Below are positions 19,001-25,082 of a stretch of DNA of 26,409 nt, in pieces. The translations under genes were made by a program, and so were the position numbers. Within the stretch, counting starts at the first letter, position 1. Each line of letters starts with the position of its first letter. Below the pieces are notes generated by a model, which saw only the letters and a program-made list of their open reading frames with translations, searched no databases and was not told the DNA's origin. This DNA comes from a virus: the IMG/VR virus record IMGVR_UViG_3300009079_000105, positions 1-26,409 of that record. One strand, written 5' to 3'.

Positions 19001-19384
19001 TCAAATTAGTTCCTTTAAAGTTGCACTATGTGCTTTCCAATTTCCAGAGGACACTATTGGGCTACGCTTGTAGCGTTCACCTTGTAAGGTGTATATCAAT
19101 GCGTCTCCGAATTTAGTTGATACTTCTTCCTTGTCATAAAAGTTATTCACACTATCTTTAGAGTGGTAACCTTCTAACATATCAAGTCTTTCAAGTGTAT
19201 CAGAGTCTACTTTGTATACTTCTACAAAGATAGACCCCTCACCTTTACGGATACCAGGGAAACTACCAAGTGAAAACATTTCATAGTTTGGTATCCACTC
19301 TCTTCCGATAAGCTTAGAGTTACCTAATACTCTATGATTACCTAAGCCTTCACGGAGTGAACCGTACACTGCTACTTTAGTCAC
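19001..19384 (-). CDS. Gamma-glutamylcyclotransferase-like (GGCT/AIG2 fold) protein
   Basis: The 127-residue protein has the fold's signature VAVYGSLREGLGNH at the N-terminus. A central LDMLEGYHSKD segment has a Glu in the position expected for the catalytic acid, and the WKAHS end is typical. Enzymes of this fold cyclise gamma-glutamyl groups and so release the amine partner (GGCT, GGACT, BtrG). Here it lies last in the amidoligase cassette, so it may cut a gamma-glutamyl or similar amide made by the upstream ligases, or protect against misligation (inference). I prefer the GTG at 19384, 8 nt after GAGGA and 4 nt after the preceding stop, over an ATG at 19423 that lies inside the upstream ORF without a ribosome site. 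Confidence 0.85.
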   Translation of the reverse strand: MTKVAVYGSLREGLGNHRVLGNSKLIGREWIPNYEMFSLGSFPGIRKGEGSIFVEVYKVDSDTLERLDMLEGYHSKDSVNNFYDKEEVSTKFGDALIYTLQGERYKRSPIVSSGNWKAHSATLKELI

Positions 19385-19388
19385 GATA

Positions 19389-19544
19389 TTAATCCTCTTT
19401 GGTTTCGTGTTTACTATACTCATCTATAAGAAACTCTTTATACTCTGAGCAATAGTCTTTGTATTGAAGAATAGGATCACCATAAGCAATCCTTTCATCA
19501 ACGTTTTCTTTAAACATTTCTTTTTTAAACTCTTCAAAAGTCAT
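19389..19544 (-). CDS. Hypothetical protein, 51 aa, within the amidoligase cassette
   Basis: This is a small acidic ORF (MTFEEFKKEMFKENVDERIA...) rich in Glu, Lys and Tyr, predicted helical. It begins 2 nt after the ATP-grasp stop, with GAAGAG upstream, and ends 4 nt before the preferred GGCT start. The tight fit between two genes supports it as real. A short highly charged protein in such a cassette could be a peptide substrate or carrier, but there is no direct evidence. The family is not recognised. Confidence 0.6.
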   Translation of the reverse strand: MTFEEFKKEMFKENVDERIAYGDPILQYKDYCSEYKEFLIDEYSKHETKED

Positions 19545-19546
19545 AG

Positions 19547-20695
19547 CTACTCTTCTATATAATCAAGTAATATCAAAGGTATGTGGAAATCAACAAGACA
19601 AGAATCATCTGTCTCATCAGTAAATGCTATCTGAGCTATACCTCTTCTATGGTTTACTGAATGTATATAAAAGTAACCACCATAACCTTGGTGCTCAGCA
19701 TTCATCCAATGACTAATACCTACATCATTACCACCAATAGAGCAGAAGTTTATAAATATTTCCTCAAGAGCACGGGTGATATCAACAGTGTCTCCCTCAT
19801 GGATATCCATTTCATAGTAAGCATATTGAGTAAACTTATTTTCTAAGATCTCTCTGGGTGATGATAGTCTAATAGGCGTATCCCACTTAGGTATGCTTTC
19901 ATTTTTGAGTAGCTTTTCAAAGCCATTCTTATACCTTGTAATAGTAGTGTCACCTTTTAAACCACATGCAGTATTAATTTCAAGAACAGTAGCTAACTTC
20001 TTATGCTCATTCCAAATAACATCTACTGCACCGAAGTCTAATCCAAGAAGATTAACTGCGTTAATAGCTTGACTTATTACAGATGAATCAGGTTCAACAT
20101 CTGATATTAGATAAATGAATCCATTAGCAGTGTTGCGTATCTGATAGGTTGAAGGGCTCTGAGAAGTCCTTATGCCTTTACGTTGAACTAAAATAGGAAC
20201 TCCACCCATAACATGTATACGAAACTCATCTCTCTTCTTCATATACTTGGTATACAGTGGGGCATTATAGATAACATCATTAGCATTATCATTAAGATTG
20301 TAACGGATAAGATCAATGCCTTCACCAGAGTGACCTTGAAGTGTATTACGGATCACAACATCATGACCCTCTGTGTACCAATCTTTAGCAACCTCAGGGT
20401 CAGTAGTCCAATCAGGAATGTTAATAGGTACAAAAGCATCTTTGTTTTCTTCTTCTATCTTACTGAAGAAGTCAAGTTTATTAGAAGCTAGCCGTACACT
20501 ATCCTGTTTGTTTATTACTTTTGCGGAGGGCAAGTGAGATAAATCTTTTGTTGAGTTGCCCCAGTTAATAATAGTTAGACCTTCTTTATCTCTGATAGAA
20601 GAGTTTTCTAACTTCATTCTTTTGCAGTTAAGAGATACAGATAAACTCTTTGCAGATTCACTGGCTTTCTTATACGGTAATACAAGGACTGTCAT
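19547..20695 (-). CDS. ATP-grasp ligase (RimK-like), 382 aa
   Basis: Residue numbers count from the ATG at 20698. The ATP-grasp core has VVIRNTLQGHSGEGI (114-128, nucleotide-binding loop), KYMKKRDEFRIHV (about 151-163), DFGAVDVIW with D216, and VLEINTACGL with E230 and N232 as Mg ligands. Such enzymes activate a carboxylate as acyl phosphate and join it to an amine. After the core, residues ~270-383 form an extra C-terminal domain that I do not recognise. Two ATGs are adjacent; the one at 20695 has GGAGG at the better distance (6 nt). It overlaps the glutamine amidotransferase gene by ~26 nt, so the two are co-produced. Confidence 0.9.
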   Translation of the reverse strand: MTVLVLPYKKASESAKSLSVSLNCKRMKLENSSIRDKEGLTIINWGNSTKDLSHLPSAKVINKQDSVRLASNKLDFFSKIEEENKDAFVPINIPDWTTDPEVAKDWYTEGHDVVIRNTLQGHSGEGIDLIRYNLNDNANDVIYNAPLYTKYMKKRDEFRIHVMGGVPILVQRKGIRTSQSPSTYQIRNTANGFIYLISDVEPDSSVISQAINAVNLLGLDFGAVDVIWNEHKKLATVLEINTACGLKGDTTITRYKNGFEKLLKNESIPKWDTPIRLSSPREILENKFTQYAYYEMDIHEGDTVDITRALEEIFINFCSIGGNDVGISHWMNAEHQGYGGYFYIHSVNHRRGIAQIAFTDETDDSCLVDFHIPLILLDYIEE

Positions 20696-21845
20696 CATAC
20701 TCCTCCACAGATAAGGTTACTTGTTTAGATACTAAAAGCTTTTCAACATCTTCTTTCTTATCTTTGTTATTAATATCATCTTCAATAACTTCAGTAATAA
20801 AAGGTGTATCACAAATAACAATATCTTCTTTGTTATCTTTACCACCCTTGATCATACTCTTTACATAAGCAGAATAGTATCCAGCTATGGCTGGGTTTGG
20901 TGCATTGAAACATTTAACTTCAAGGTGTAACCCATCAGTACTAATACCAAGCAAGGGCTTTTTATTCTTACCCTTTAGGTGCTTAGCCTTAACACCTTCA
21001 GAGTAGAACTCAATCTCATCACCAATCTTTAGGTCATACTTAGTCAGATTGTTAAGTGGGTGAGAAGGCTTACTCTTTACCGCCTTAGACCATGCACCAC
21101 TACTGCCATAGTAACCTTGGTAACCTAACTGAGGTTTGATATACTTAGGTTGAATCTTAACTGGACGTTGAGTAGGCTTAAGACCTTTAGTATCTTTTAG
21201 ATTGAAGGATAGTAGAACACCAACAGGTAACTCTTCAAGAGAATACGTTATATCATTACGACATAGTATAGCTTCAAGCATATATCTTTCTGAAGCATAG
21301 TAATATGTATCACGTTTAGCATTCTTTGCTATCCACAGTGGACGTTCTTCATTACGTACTAAGTAGAACTCCATGGTGTGATCATTGTACCAAGACAAAG
21401 CAAAGGCACCTTTAAGGACACTGATAACCTCTTCAGGATCTTTAGTAAGTCCCATAGCATACGCAATGTTCTCACTATCCACAGTGAAATCTTTGTGGTC
21501 AGGGAGGGTTGTCTGGTCACCTAGTGTACCGTTGTGTGCCAGCGTTACATTACCGTATGTAAATGGGTGAGCATTGATGTCGTTAACTGCACCCTGGGTA
21601 GCATATCTATTGTGACCAAGCAAGAAGTCACCTGAAGTATTATTTGCTATATTAGCCCCATGTTTTAACTGAAGAAAGTCAGGGGCACTAAGGGCTTTTT
21701 TGTAGGTAGTAACTACATTATCTATATCATTAGTAGCTACACCTGTACTATGAGCACCACGTAGAGTGTCTACAAACAACAGTTGATTAAACACTTTTGT
21801 ATCTTGGAAGTTGATATCACCTATTACTCCAACTAATCCGCACAT
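20670..21845 (-). CDS. Class II glutamine amidotransferase with unrecognised C-terminal domain
   Basis: This 391-residue protein starts MCGLVG, which places the nucleophile Cys2 at the mature N-terminus. The glutaminase fold is complete: R29-GAHSTG, GHNRYATQG (R80), NAHPF, AHNGTL (N105/G106) and D123-SEN, the same set as in GlmS/PurF-type domains. It should release ammonia (or a glutamyl enzyme) from glutamine. Instead of the sugar-isomerase or phosphoribosyltransferase partner domain, residues ~230-391 are a novel segment. It has an aromatic/Gly-rich linker (YQGYYGSSGAW), then a beta-rich part and an acidic tail, so its synthetase partner is probably one of the neighbouring ligases. AAGGA lies 6 nt before the ATG; both ends overlap adjacent genes. 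Confidence 0.93.
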   Translation of the reverse strand: MCGLVGVIGDINFQDTKVFNQLLFVDTLRGAHSTGVATNDIDNVVTTYKKALSAPDFLQLKHGANIANNTSGDFLLGHNRYATQGAVNDINAHPFTYGNVTLAHNGTLGDQTTLPDHKDFTVDSENIAYAMGLTKDPEEVISVLKGAFALSWYNDHTMEFYLVRNEERPLWIAKNAKRDTYYYASERYMLEAILCRNDITYSLEELPVGVLLSFNLKDTKGLKPTQRPVKIQPKYIKPQLGYQGYYGSSGAWSKAVKSKPSHPLNNLTKYDLKIGDEIEFYSEGVKAKHLKGKNKKPLLGISTDGLHLEVKCFNAPNPAIAGYYSAYVKSMIKGGKDNKEDIVICDTPFITEVIEDDINNKDKKEDVEKLLVSKQVTLSVEEYDDSPCITV

Positions 21846-22738
21846 AATTTATCCTTTATCTTTGACAATTGTCTTTCGCCTTGGTTATGACTTACTATTA
21901 AGTCGTGAACTTCTCTTAAACGAGAATTAAAAAGTAACTCTTCTGCTACCCATACACCTTGAAAGATCTTCATGCTTGAGTCATTAGCATGGATCTTATT
22001 TTCTCTTACAAGATCACCGAACACATACTTTAGCATAGCTTTAGAACCTTCAGTGCTAAGTAGTGTTGGTATATCTGAGATGTATTTATTAGGATCTAAT
22101 ACAAACTGTTTCAAACAAAGTAAATGATTGATCCAATTGATTAGCCTATCTTTATCACAGGTACCTTCATGACCTCTGAACTCAATAGCCCCACGTTCCA
22201 CAAGGGATTGCAGGTTTATTGCAGAGTATTTCTCCCAAGATGAATGCCTTAAACGATCAGGTCCATCCTTAAAGATATCAAGTAGCCTACTGATTTGGTT
22301 TTGACCACGGTATAAAGACAGAGAGTATATACTTTCTTCTCTCTCTTGACCACATATACTAAACAGGTAAGGCTCTACCATAGCATACAGTGTAACGAGG
22401 TCACATACTTTAGACCATAGCATATCTCTCGCATCTACATGGACATGTACTGAAGTTCTAAAACCAAAAGTACCTTGGCCTTCCAGTGCTTCTTCAAGCT
22501 TTGATAGCCTTGAGACTGCAGCAGAACCACCAAGAGGCCCACGGAATACATACTCTACTCCATTGTTACGTAAAGATCCATCGGGTATACAACGCCACCC
22601 AGGGACTTTAGGGGCATCAGGTAAGTTTTCTATCTCAACCTCAACACCTACCCTTGTTCCTGAGATAAGCTCCCCTAACCTAGTTGTATCTGGGTCAGGT
22701 TCTTTATGGTTGTAATAAGATTGAATTGTGTAGTCCAT
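21833..22738 (-). CDS. Amidoligase (glutamine-synthetase fold, Amidoligase_2 type)
   Basis: Numbered from ATG 22738, the GS-like catalytic pattern is clear. GVEVEIE (E33, E35) is followed by DGSLRNNGVEYVF (D53, E62), SVHVHVD (H98, H100), KYSAINLQSL, and IEFRGHEGT (E176, R178). The family is predicted to make amide bonds between a carboxylate and an amine with ATP. I choose the ATG with GGAGG 10 nt upstream over a TTG at 22747. It overlaps the genes on both sides. A second, different amidoligase lies two genes upstream. Its substrate is unknown. Confidence 0.88.
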   Translation of the reverse strand: MDYTIQSYYNHKEPDPDTTRLGELISGTRVGVEVEIENLPDAPKVPGWRCIPDGSLRNNGVEYVFRGPLGGSAAVSRLSKLEEALEGQGTFGFRTSVHVHVDARDMLWSKVCDLVTLYAMVEPYLFSICGQEREESIYSLSLYRGQNQISRLLDIFKDGPDRLRHSSWEKYSAINLQSLVERGAIEFRGHEGTCDKDRLINWINHLLCLKQFVLDPNKYISDIPTLLSTEGSKAMLKYVFGDLVRENKIHANDSSMKIFQGVWVAEELLFNSRLREVHDLIVSHNQGERQLSKIKDKLCAD

Positions 22739-23387
22739 TTGGGACAATCCTCCGAAGCATTGGAATTAAATGGTTTACTTGATCAGGTATCAATACTTTA
22801 TTATCCTCAATGATACCCACGATATTGTTACGATACATAAGAACAGGTTTGTCTAAGTAGTAACAGGATGATATAGCAAAGTGTGGAGAGATACAACGTG
22901 CTATCTTTTCACCCTCAACTACTAGCTCAATTGCATCCTTAAGATTTGTGTAGGTTGGATTGTACAACTCTCCGATAGCTGAATCAGAGAATGATCCATC
23001 GACTGTAATCCCGTCATCTTGAAGAGCTATAAGTAACCTACGATCTGTTGGTGCAACATGTATACAAGATTGCCTTAGACCTTTCTTCCATTGTCTTTTG
23101 GCAGCCCTTTCAACATACAGAGAGTGAGCCTTGTGGTTGATGTAGCCTAGCTCAGGCCAATCGAACTTGATGGCGTTACTAGGGTCTTTAGGGTCAAGCC
23201 TTACAGTATCACCGTTGAGCTTTCTTAGTATAAGTAAGAAAGAATCATCAGTATAGTTTACATCTAAGACACGAGCAGGGTACCACCCATCATCATCTCT
23301 GGTTTTGAATTGGAGATAGGTATCAGCATAGGTAACACTGAAGTCACGAGCTGAGATATCCGATAGGATTTCTTCACCGTTAATCAT
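22704..23387 (-). CDS. Unrecognised 227-aa protein of the amidoligase cassette
   Basis: An N-terminal beta-rich part (about 20-70: GWYPARVLDVNY...LLILRKLNGDTVRLDP) looks like a small barrel. A basic segment LYVERAAKRQWKKGLRQS (about 90-107) and a mixed C-terminal half follow. I know no family name. The RQWKKGL segment is reminiscent of other phage proteins encoded next to amidoligases. The ATG overlaps the upstream ligase stop (ATGA) and has GGAGG 4 nt upstream. Its 3' end overlaps the next ligase, so it is made in step with both and may form a complex with them (inference). Confidence 0.75.
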   Translation of the reverse strand: MINGEEILSDISARDFSVTYADTYLQFKTRDDDGWYPARVLDVNYTDDSFLLILRKLNGDTVRLDPKDPSNAIKFDWPELGYINHKAHSLYVERAAKRQWKKGLRQSCIHVAPTDRRLLIALQDDGITVDGSFSDSAIGELYNPTYTNLKDAIELVVEGEKIARCISPHFAISSCYYLDKPVLMYRNNIVGIIEDNKVLIPDQVNHLIPMLRRIVPNGLHNSILLQP

Positions 23388-24175
23388 ATAACCTCCAAGT
23401 TTAAGTCATTGATAATGTTAGTTGCCTCCCTTGACTTACTGTTGTTGATTACTTTACGGATAGTATTACCGTCTGCAATCTCCATAAACTCTGGTAGTAA
23501 GTTAAGGTTCTGAGTGGCCCATAGGGTACGATCATATACCCAAGACATAAGCTCCTGTGATCCGAGCCAGAAGTTACTTACAGTTCTGTACTCAACACCG
23601 TAATCCTTGTGACGCATGGAACCTGCCTTGCCATAGAGCTTTCGCCTTTGACTGTCGGTATCAATCAAAATAGAAGGCAACCCAATAACATAGTCTAACA
23701 TCTTAACCAAAGAGAGGTTAGTAAAGGTTTGTGGGTCGTCATAACCAACATGAATGTGACCACCAGCAGTCCTTAGGGTATGCCCTTCAGCCTTAGGCTT
23801 AGGCAACCTACGGTCCGTCCAAGCATTCCATTCAGAACTACAACCAAACTCCATAGCATCCGGACCAAAGCTTTGTAGCTGCTCTGTGGTGTACGTATGA
23901 CTAGGGATAATAATAGGTTGCAGTTGGTTACTTTCAAGGATACTCTTGAGATCAGCCATGACGGAATCCATATTGTTTATGAACTCCATCTTGGATCTTG
24001 CAGGATTGATGTTGAACTCTGCAAGTACATTGTCCTCTTGAACACCACCGTCAGTTACTGGTCGAGGGAATAGCTTACTGCCACCCACATGACCAATGGC
24101 TGATGTGATAGAACCATCGGATGTCGCAACGAATACTTCAGGGTCTGCACCCACAGTTACATTAGAAAGTCTCAT
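23384..24175 (-). CDS. Phage amidoligase, phiEco32-like COOH-NH2 ligase type
   Basis: The 263-residue protein has the GS-like pattern of the phage COOH-NH2 ligase family first noted in phiEco32-like phages. It has GADPEVF (E13), DNVLAEFNINPA (E53), MEFGCSSEWNAW, TAGGHIHVGY (H140, H142), RRKLYGKAGSMR, and VEYRTVSNFWL (E195, R197). It should form an amide or peptide bond using ATP. It is only distantly like the second amidoligase downstream, so the two probably perform successive or different couplings. GGAGG lies 6 nt before the ATG, which begins 1 nt after the upstream gene stop. Confidence 0.9.
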   Translation of the reverse strand: MRLSNVTVGADPEVFVATSDGSITSAIGHVGGSKLFPRPVTDGGVQEDNVLAEFNINPARSKMEFINNMDSVMADLKSILESNQLQPIIIPSHTYTTEQLQSFGPDAMEFGCSSEWNAWTDRRLPKPKAEGHTLRTAGGHIHVGYDDPQTFTNLSLVKMLDYVIGLPSILIDTDSQRRKLYGKAGSMRHKDYGVEYRTVSNFWLGSQELMSWVYDRTLWATQNLNLLPEFMEIADGNTIRKVINNSKSREATNIINDLNLEVI

Positions 24176-24176
24176 G

Positions 24177-25082
24177 TCACTCCTCCATCATTGCAATTAG
24201 TTCACGCATTTGATCATCGTTAAGGATGTAGTTATTGCCATACTGGTGATGTAACTGCCAGTGTCTTTTTACTGGGGGTAACTTAAGGATATCGTTGTTG
24301 ATGATACACTGGAGATTACCTGTTGAGTAACTACACCCTTGTTTCTTTGCGAAGAATCTACCCAGAGCTTTCTTGTTCCTTATGGGGAACCTGTGGTAAG
24401 CATTAGACTGAGACATAATATCTTGCTCACCAGCGTACATAACGGTATCAAAGTCATCACCTAACAACCTGTTAAGCATAAGCTTTGCACCTGTGTAGCT
24501 GAAATATCCAGGGTAAATGATAGAACTTTCTTCATCTGTGGAAGGATTGAAGCGTTGAAGGTACGTATCTTTGTCTGGATAGTTGTACCCTCTAGCACCA
24601 TAATTGGTGTTGTTCAACGCAAATGCCAGCACGAAGGCGACATCTTTGGAACATCTAAATTTATCCACAATATGACACCAAGTATTAACGATACCTGCTT
24701 GGAACTGTGGGGCTCTGAACATAAACAATGCGAGCATCACTCGGTCCGAAGGGGCATTACATCTTACCTTGAATCCGTGTTGCATTGCATAGTGATTATC
24801 GGGACGATCAGCTACCATGTTACCGAAGTATGGTAAGCTTAGTAGGTAGTCCCACCATCGACATGCCCTGCCCCAACTCATTGATTCATTTATCGAGACC
24901 TTCTCAATGCTTTTATTGGCGTCACTATCCCACTTGCATTGCAGGAAGGGTAGGTACTCTATGTAGTCTAGTCTAGCATGAGAGATGTTGTGGGTTGCTC
25001 CATTGACTGAAGCGAAGCAGGGTTTACTAAGGTACTTAAGGGTACGGTAGTCACTAAGGTGAACATTGAATGAAACACTCAT
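24177..25082 (-). CDS. Unrecognised 301-aa protein at the head of the amidoligase cassette
   Basis: This Trp/Tyr- and Asn-rich protein has WGRACRWWDYLLSLPYFGN at about 70-88 and a VRCNAPSDRVMLALFMFRAPQ segment at about 108-128. A hydrophobic FVLAFALNNTNYGARGYNYP follows at about 150-170. No motif that I know of is present. Conservation of the cluster would suggest a substrate-binding or scaffold role. It begins 1 nt after the stop of a 28-codon ORF and shares its GAGGATAAGTGATATG junction, and ends 1 nt before the first amidoligase. No signal peptide or transmembrane helix is evident. Confidence 0.8.
   Translation of the reverse strand: MSVSFNVHLSDYRTLKYLSKPCFASVNGATHNISHARLDYIEYLPFLQCKWDSDANKSIEKVSINESMSWGRACRWWDYLLSLPYFGNMVADRPDNHYAMQHGFKVRCNAPSDRVMLALFMFRAPQFQAGIVNTWCHIVDKFRCSKDVAFVLAFALNNTNYGARGYNYPDKDTYLQRFNPSTDEESSIIYPGYFSYTGAKLMLNRLLGDDFDTVMYAGEQDIMSQSNAYHRFPIRNKKALGRFFAKKQGCSYSTGNLQCIINNDILKLPPVKRHWQLHHQYGNNYILNDDQMRELIAMMEE

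What the first reader, a model, noticed from the sequence alone, without database searches (positions are those of the whole stretch)
19001..25082. Six-kilobase amidoligase / ATP-grasp / GATase II / GGCT cassette
Eight consecutive ORFs overlap or abut: an unknown protein, a phiEco32-like COOH-NH2 ligase, another unknown protein, an Amidoligase_2, a class II glutamine amidotransferase, an ATP-grasp ligase, a 51-aa ORF and a gamma-glutamylcyclotransferase-like protein. Amidoligase clusters in phages were predicted by comparative genomics (Iyer, Aravind and colleagues), but their product is, as far as I know, unknown. The set contains an ammonia source, three ATP-dependent ligases and a gamma-glutamyl-cleaving enzyme. 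That is enough for a complete pathway that makes a peptide-like metabolite or tags a protein, envelope component or nucleotide.
Basis: partly seen in the sequence, partly recalled or inferred. Interest (0 to 1): 0.88.

Follow-up and report, generated by a model that had tools for sequence, protein, structure and literature searches.

The report
Known phage amidoligase gene cassette
This stretch is a real and intact set of phage genes for joining and trimming amino-acid-like building blocks, already known from many phages of Gram-negative bacteria; what it makes has never been shown, and here it turns out to have two overlooked partner genes and to be confined to viruses.

Summary
On the minus strand, 25082 to 19001, lie a COOH-NH2 ligase, an Amidoligase_2, a class II glutamine amidotransferase, a RimK-like ATP-grasp ligase and a GGCT-like protein, plus two unknown proteins and a 51-aa ORF. 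Catalytic residues are invariant or nearly so across 62-92 homologues per family. Gene order matches phiEco32, LUZ24 and PaP3. It is not new: papers citing Iyer 2009 and Hardies 2013 describe it, and Duhaime 2017 calls it a seven-gene 'peptidoglycan modification cassette'. No experiment on its product was found.

Additions here. (1) The core is the four enzymes plus unknown 'B' (22704-23387), almost always next to the amidoligase. GGCT and unknown 'A' (24177-25082) are common. The 51-aa ORF is not part of it. (2) Relatives selected by DNA polymerase all carry cassette genes where sequence reaches (14/14). (3) In 84,980 cellular genomes only six hits appeared, all in MAG contigs; the two examined carry phage replication genes. 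(4) It is middle-expressed in PaP3, and its proteins look cytosolic. (5) Cassette phages tf and Delta have restriction-cuttable DNA, against a general DNA hypermodification role. The target (murein precursor, protein or soluble metabolite) remains unknown. New member of a known kind.

The parts
24177..25082 (-). Unknown protein A (301 aa), first gene of the cassette; same position as phi32_87, LUZ24 gp15, PaP3 orf49
   Evidence: Found in 49 of 87 loci and in three independently fetched loci at E 1e-15 to 1e-20. Direct profile match of the window clade to named-phage proteins 79% probability; via intermediates 97-98%. AF2 pLDDT 86.9, no significant PDB match.
23384..24175 (-). COOH-NH2 ligase, phiEco32-like type 2 (PF14395), 263 aa
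   Evidence: D11, E13, E53, H140, H142, E195, R197 invariant in 89/89.
22704..23387 (-). Unknown protein B (227 aa, phrog_11055); probable non-catalytic partner of the amidoligase
   Evidence: In 74/87 loci, next to the amidoligase in 72 and overlapping it in 67. AF2 pLDDT 93.9; only weak Tudor/SH3-barrel-like matches, none at E <= 0.001.
21833..22747 (-). Amidoligase_2 (PF12224), 304 aa from a TTG start
   Evidence: E38, E65, H101, H103, E189, R191 invariant in 89/89.
20670..21845 (-). Class II glutamine amidotransferase (GATase_6 domain, about residues 1-200) with a C-terminal region of unknown fold; no synthase domain found
   Evidence: Cys2 in 85 of 86 aligned sequences, N105/G106 in 91, D123 in 92/92.
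19547..20698 (-). ATP-grasp ligase, RimK/MptN-like, with a C-terminal extension of about 100 aa seen in the window's clade
   Evidence: K74, E158, R160, K174, D226, E240 invariant in 83/83, N242 in 80/83.
19389..19544 (-). 51-aa ORF; lineage-specific, probably not part of the pathway
   Evidence: tblastn over the loci then held finds it only in the window and L010/L012.
19001..19423 (-). GGCT/AIG2-like gamma-glutamyl cyclotransferase (PF06094); start codon uncertain
   Evidence: Putative catalytic E84 in 62/62, Y-G-[ST]-L motif in 61/62.

Best explanation
This is the phiEco32/LUZ24-type phage amidoligase cassette. It is a cytosolic, middle-infection pathway: two glutamine-synthetase-fold ligases (C and M) and a RimK-like ATP-grasp ligase (P) activate carboxylates with ATP and join them to amines. 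The class II amidotransferase (G), lacking a synthase domain of its own, feeds ammonia to a ligase, most likely M with partner protein B, or removes a gamma-glutamyl group. The GGCT-like protein (Y) trims gamma-glutamyl groups. The acceptor I judge most likely is the soluble murein precursor, as earlier authors proposed for peptidoglycan, so that newly built wall in the infected cell carries altered stem peptides. Shown here: gene content, order, catalytic residues, co-occurrence, restriction to phages. Taken from a paper: middle expression. Inferred: ligase-partner assignments, order of reactions, acceptor and benefit. My split: cassette identity 0.97, one coordinated pathway 0.85, murein target about 0.45.
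For: Gene order A-C-B-M-G-P-Y in 34 loci and close variants in most others, and in phiEco32, LUZ24, PaP3 and tf. Near-equal phage record counts: C 312, P 309, G 340, M 330, with matching counts per genus. Catalytic residues intact. Independent ascertainment by DNA polymerase: 14/14 loci with at least 7.9 kb upstream carry cassette genes. Only six cellular-collection hits, all MAG contigs, with phage replication genes beside the cassette in both contigs examined. PaP3 ORF32-48 are middle genes and the cassette is orf42-49. No transmembrane segment in the window's seven proteins by hydropathy scan. P is RimK/MptN-like; Y is annotated BtrG-like in tf. The rows listed for C-bearing phages show Gram-negative hosts. 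Peptidoglycan proposal; superinfection proposal for phiEco32 cited.
Against: No experiment in the papers read shows any product. The murein target rests on enzyme analogy only. GGCT is absent from 27 of 87 loci (some truncated), so it is not essential. The C-terminal region of G and proteins A and B have no known fold that would tie them to the wall. Gram-negative restriction could be lineage history.
Confidence: 0.45

Rival explanations
1. Protein tagging: the RimK-like ligase adds glutamate or another amino acid to the end or side chain of a host or phage protein, and the two GS-fold ligases extend or amidate the tag.
For: The ATP-grasp profile matches RimK and other alpha-L-glutamate ligases best (E 1e-8 to 5e-6; MptN 5.6e-8, RimK family 1.5e-6). 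All proteins look cytosolic. Conserved proteins A and B could be targets or adaptors.
Against: RimK and MptN scores are far below the curated cut-offs (32 of 350 bits, 27.8 of 143.4). No conserved small substrate protein was found: the 51-aa ORF is private.
Confidence: 0.22
2. Soluble gamma-glutamyl or amidated peptide metabolite for counter-defence or takeover, made with a gamma-glutamyl protecting-group logic as in butirosin (BtrJ/BtrG) or ergothioneine (EgtA/EgtC) synthesis.
For: Ligases, GGCT and a synthase-less class II GATase fit that logic (own knowledge of those pathways); tf GGCT annotated BtrG-like. Virus-only and lineage-wide retention. Gordonclarkvirinae, which carry it, resist restriction-modification with no known mechanism.
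Against: GATase match to EgtC is very weak (18 of 218.65 bits). No known defence is linked to it; no PADLOC match except a weak Cas8a hit (E 0.012) for protein A.
Confidence: 0.22
3. DNA base hypermodification made by the ligases.
For: Unexplained restriction resistance of Gordonclarkvirinae; genes lie next to replication genes.
Against: Phage tf was cloned with RsaI, HpaI, EcoRV and SmaI and cut with HaeIII; its first 18 kb hold 10 SmaI sites. Phage Delta was cut by BamHI (6 sites), and its failure to cut with SmaI is explained by having no site. These enzymes test only some sites and modifications.
Confidence: 0.04
4. Auxiliary metabolism: nitrogen or glutathione/amino-acid recycling for the host, as proposed for phage ZRK32.
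For: ZRK32 authors' reading of growth promotion with nitrate or ammonium.
Against: Virus-only distribution rather than recent host acquisition; fixed multi-ligase order; the ZRK32 record is a partial, unverified genome and no enzyme was tested in the passages read.
Confidence: 0.07

Closest known systems
phiEco32 / LUZ24 / PaP3 amidoligase cassette ('peptidoglycan modification cassette' of Duhaime 2017 PMC5498523; Iyer 2009 and Hardies 2013 as cited there)
   Same: Same five enzyme families, two unknown proteins in the same positions, same order A-C-B-M-G-P-Y, next to primase/helicase
   Different: Window has a tighter operon with overlapping genes, a shorter GATase (391 aa against 510-676), an ATP-grasp with a C-terminal extension, and a private 51-aa ORF
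RimK / MptN alpha-L-glutamate ligases
   Same: ATP-grasp core with conserved Lys, Arg and metal-binding D..E-x-N
   Different: Scores far below family cut-offs; acceptor unknown
Arthrobacter phage LiSara GGCT-amidoligase-GATase trio
   Same: Three of the enzyme families in a row
   Different: No COOH-NH2 ligase or ATP-grasp found in the stretch read; Gram-positive host
Butirosin BtrJ/BtrG and ergothioneine EgtA/EgtC (gamma-glutamyl on/off steps; own knowledge)
   Same: Ligase plus gamma-glutamyl-removing enzyme logic
   Different: No biosynthetic partners; EgtC model not met

Membership tests
phiEco32-type phage amidoligase cassette | COOH-NH2 ligase, Amidoligase_2, class II GATase and ATP-grasp ligase together in one transcription direction | tested here: met
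phiEco32-type phage amidoligase cassette | GGCT-like protein | tested here: met
   PF06094 75.2 bits against cut-off 22.8
phiEco32-type phage amidoligase cassette | Gene order as in phiEco32 and LUZ24 beside replication genes | tested here: met
phiEco32-type phage amidoligase cassette | Catalytic residues intact | tested here: met
phiEco32-type phage amidoligase cassette | Alters host peptidoglycan / prevents superinfection (proposed role) | not testable with these tools
   Only predictions in the papers read
RimK family alpha-L-glutamate ligase | Score above TIGR00768 cut-off (143.4 bits) | tested here: not met
   27.8 bits; remote relationship only
GlmS / PurF / AsnB-type amidotransferase synthases | GATase domain plus a synthase domain, score above full-length cut-off | tested here: not met
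   Only residues 1-221 match; 20-56 bits against cut-offs of 267-418
EgtC gamma-glutamyl hydrolase | Score above TIGR03442 cut-off | tested here: not met
   18 of 218.65 bits
GGCT/AIG2-like gamma-glutamyl cyclotransferase | YGSL motif and catalytic Glu | tested here: met
   Y20-G21-S22-L23 and E84 conserved
Known anti-phage defence system components | Credible PADLOC match | tested here: not met
   Only Cas8a E 0.012 for protein A

The most novel reading that the evidence does not exclude
The cassette, with proteins A and B as core parts, makes a virus-only peptide-like compound or protein tag, unrelated to the cell wall, that defeats a bacterial defence; it could account for the unexplained restriction resistance of Gordonclarkvirinae.
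Probability: 0.2. Interest if true: 0.85.

Novelty: new member of a known kind. Interest (0 to 1): 0.4.

Why it matters
The cassette is present in more than 300 sequenced phages, including model phages of E. coli and Pseudomonas, and related COOH-NH2 ligase genes lie in about 500 viral-contig stretches. Its product has stayed a prediction since the proposal of 2009. The comparison here narrows the parts list (four enzymes plus B, often A and GGCT, not the 51-aa ORF), shows it is virus-only at this sensitivity and lineage-wide in this group, and argues against general DNA modification. Kuravirus phages that plate on O-antigen-restored E. coli K-12 make a direct test possible.

Tried and rejected
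Ribosomal peptide substrate: the 51-aa ORF is not conserved, so rejected as a core part. B-amidoligase fusion: loci without B have amidoligases with N-terminal extensions of about 160-220 aa, but no detectable homology to B; left as suggestive. Solved relatives of C and M by sequence: only chance-level or unrelated hits. Fold matches for A: none. Long ATP-grasp and GATase proteins scanned for fused domains: no extra Pfam domain. First genome scan with the full alignment failed for lack of conserved stretches and was redone with a closer set. The first test of A against named phages was contaminated because both alignments held the window protein; redone cleanly. Iyer 2009 itself is not held, so its content is known only through papers citing it. 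Four further papers could not be opened because of the paper cap.

Full report
The window is a 26,409-base IMG/VR virus record. Besides the cassette it carries a T7-type RNA polymerase, a primase/helicase, a family A DNA polymerase, an exonuclease, a ribonucleotide reductase and a Gp2.5-like single-strand-binding protein. The cassette lies beside these replication genes on the same strand. It comprises, in order of transcription, protein A (24177-25082), COOH-NH2 ligase C (23384-24175), protein B (22704-23387), Amidoligase_2 M (21833-22747), class II GATase G (20670-21845), ATP-grasp P (19547-20698), a 51-aa ORF, and GGCT-like Y (19001-19423). Family assignments are strong. P is recognised only by phage families and by profile: its 46-sequence profile matches solved alpha-L-glutamate ligases and RimK.

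Co-occurrence. In 50,697 phage records, C matches 312, P 309, G 340 and M 330; counts agree almost exactly by genus (Pseudomonas 121/120/121/119, Escherichia 93/93/92/92, Vibrio 22/22/22/21, in the order C/P/G/M). GGCT is looser (131 records). Exceptions are informative: Arthrobacter phage LiSara carries M, G and GGCT without C or P in the stretch read. In viral contigs 503 stretches encode a relative of C; 79 distinct loci were fetched. The commonest order is A-C-B-M-G-P-Y (34 loci), the order in phiEco32 and LUZ24.

Because those loci were selected by C, a second set was selected by the window's DNA polymerase. All 14 loci with at least 7.9 kb upstream of the polymerase carry cassette genes, at polymerase identities of 72-99%; several are contigs already seen in the first set. 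The cassette is therefore a standing part of this phage group, not sporadic cargo.

Catalytic residues are conserved: C D11, E13, E53, H140, H142, E195 and R197 in 89/89; M E38, E65, H101, H103, E189 and R191 in 89/89; G Cys2 in 85 of 86 aligned and D123 in 92/92; P K74, E158, R160, D226 and E240 in 83/83; Y E84 in 62/62.

Parts list. The 51-aa ORF is found only in the window and one near-identical contig, so it is not a pathway component. In phiEco32 the host RNA polymerase inhibitor gp79 lies at a similar place between ATP-grasp and GGCT, which shows that unrelated takeover genes can settle there. Protein B sits directly before the amidoligase in 72 of 74 loci and overlaps it in 67, so it is probably a partner of M. 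Its AF2 model is confident (pLDDT 93.9) and has only weak Tudor/SH3-barrel-like matches, none significant. Protein A is divergent. The window clade matches an intermediate viral set at 98% probability and that set matches named-phage proteins at 97.5%, while the direct match is 79%. Three independently fetched loci hold it at E 1e-15 to 1e-20, with a profile whose seeds had been chosen by position. Its AF2 model is good (86.9) and has no PDB match.

Distribution and timing. A scan of 84,980 bacterial and archaeal species genomes found six relatives of C, all in MAG contigs of 5-50 kb, each with further cassette genes. In both contigs examined, phage primase/helicase and DNA polymerase genes lie next door. 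The scan reaches limited divergence, so 'virus-only' means at this sensitivity. In PaP3 the cassette is orf42-49, and ORF32-48 peak at 10-30 minutes as middle genes. The window's seven proteins show no transmembrane segment in a hydropathy scan.

What it does. Papers citing Iyer 2009 and Hardies 2013 propose modification of host peptidoglycan, and for phiEco32 prevention of superinfection. I found no experiment on the product. The chemistry is clear in outline: three ATP-dependent carboxylate-amine ligases, an ammonia source without its own synthase domain, and a gamma-glutamyl-cleaving enzyme. The acceptor is not known. DNA modification as a general role is unlikely: cassette phage tf was cloned and cut with several restriction enzymes, it has 10 SmaI sites in 18 kb, and phage Delta's resistance to SmaI is explained by having no site. 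It is still notable that Gordonclarkvirinae, which carry the cassette, resist restriction-modification without a known mechanism. The authors point to a dCTP deaminase and a nucleotidyltransferase; the cassette is not mentioned in the passages read. I place murein precursor first (about 0.45), then protein tag and soluble metabolite (about 0.22 each).

Verdict. Real, intact, strongly conserved, and already described: a new member of a known kind. The open question is old and good, and laboratory phages exist to test it.

Noticed in passing
L093:6715-7338, L094:4777-5391, L006:2011-2646: A second, separate glutamine amidotransferase gene near the cassette: phrog_7218 next to protein A in L093 and L094, and a 211-aa gene annotated glutamine amidotransferase near the protein A homologue in phage T5S1; could be a further, unrecognised cassette part.
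   Followed up: no
L046, L050, L054, L060, L067, L069, L070, L071, L073, L083, L088, L089: Loci lacking protein B have amidoligases with N-terminal extensions of about 160-220 aa (measured in the loci), without detectable homology to B; may replace it.
   Followed up: partly
L002:10675-10923 (phi32_79): The phiEco32 host RNA polymerase inhibitor gp79 is encoded inside the cassette, between ATP-grasp and GGCT.
   Followed up: no
window:2309-6136: 1275-aa protein with a weak match to a virion RNA polymerase family (phrog_2206, E 1.6e-4), encoded on the opposite strand to the replication genes.
   Followed up: no
window:10982-11530: 182-aa protein matching phrog_447 ('NAD synthetase') and homing-endonuclease families; the annotation looks doubtful.
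   Followed up: no
window:19547-20698, residues about 280-383: ATP-grasp C-terminal extension present in the window's clade and absent from most other cassette ATP-grasps (alignment A7).
   Followed up: no
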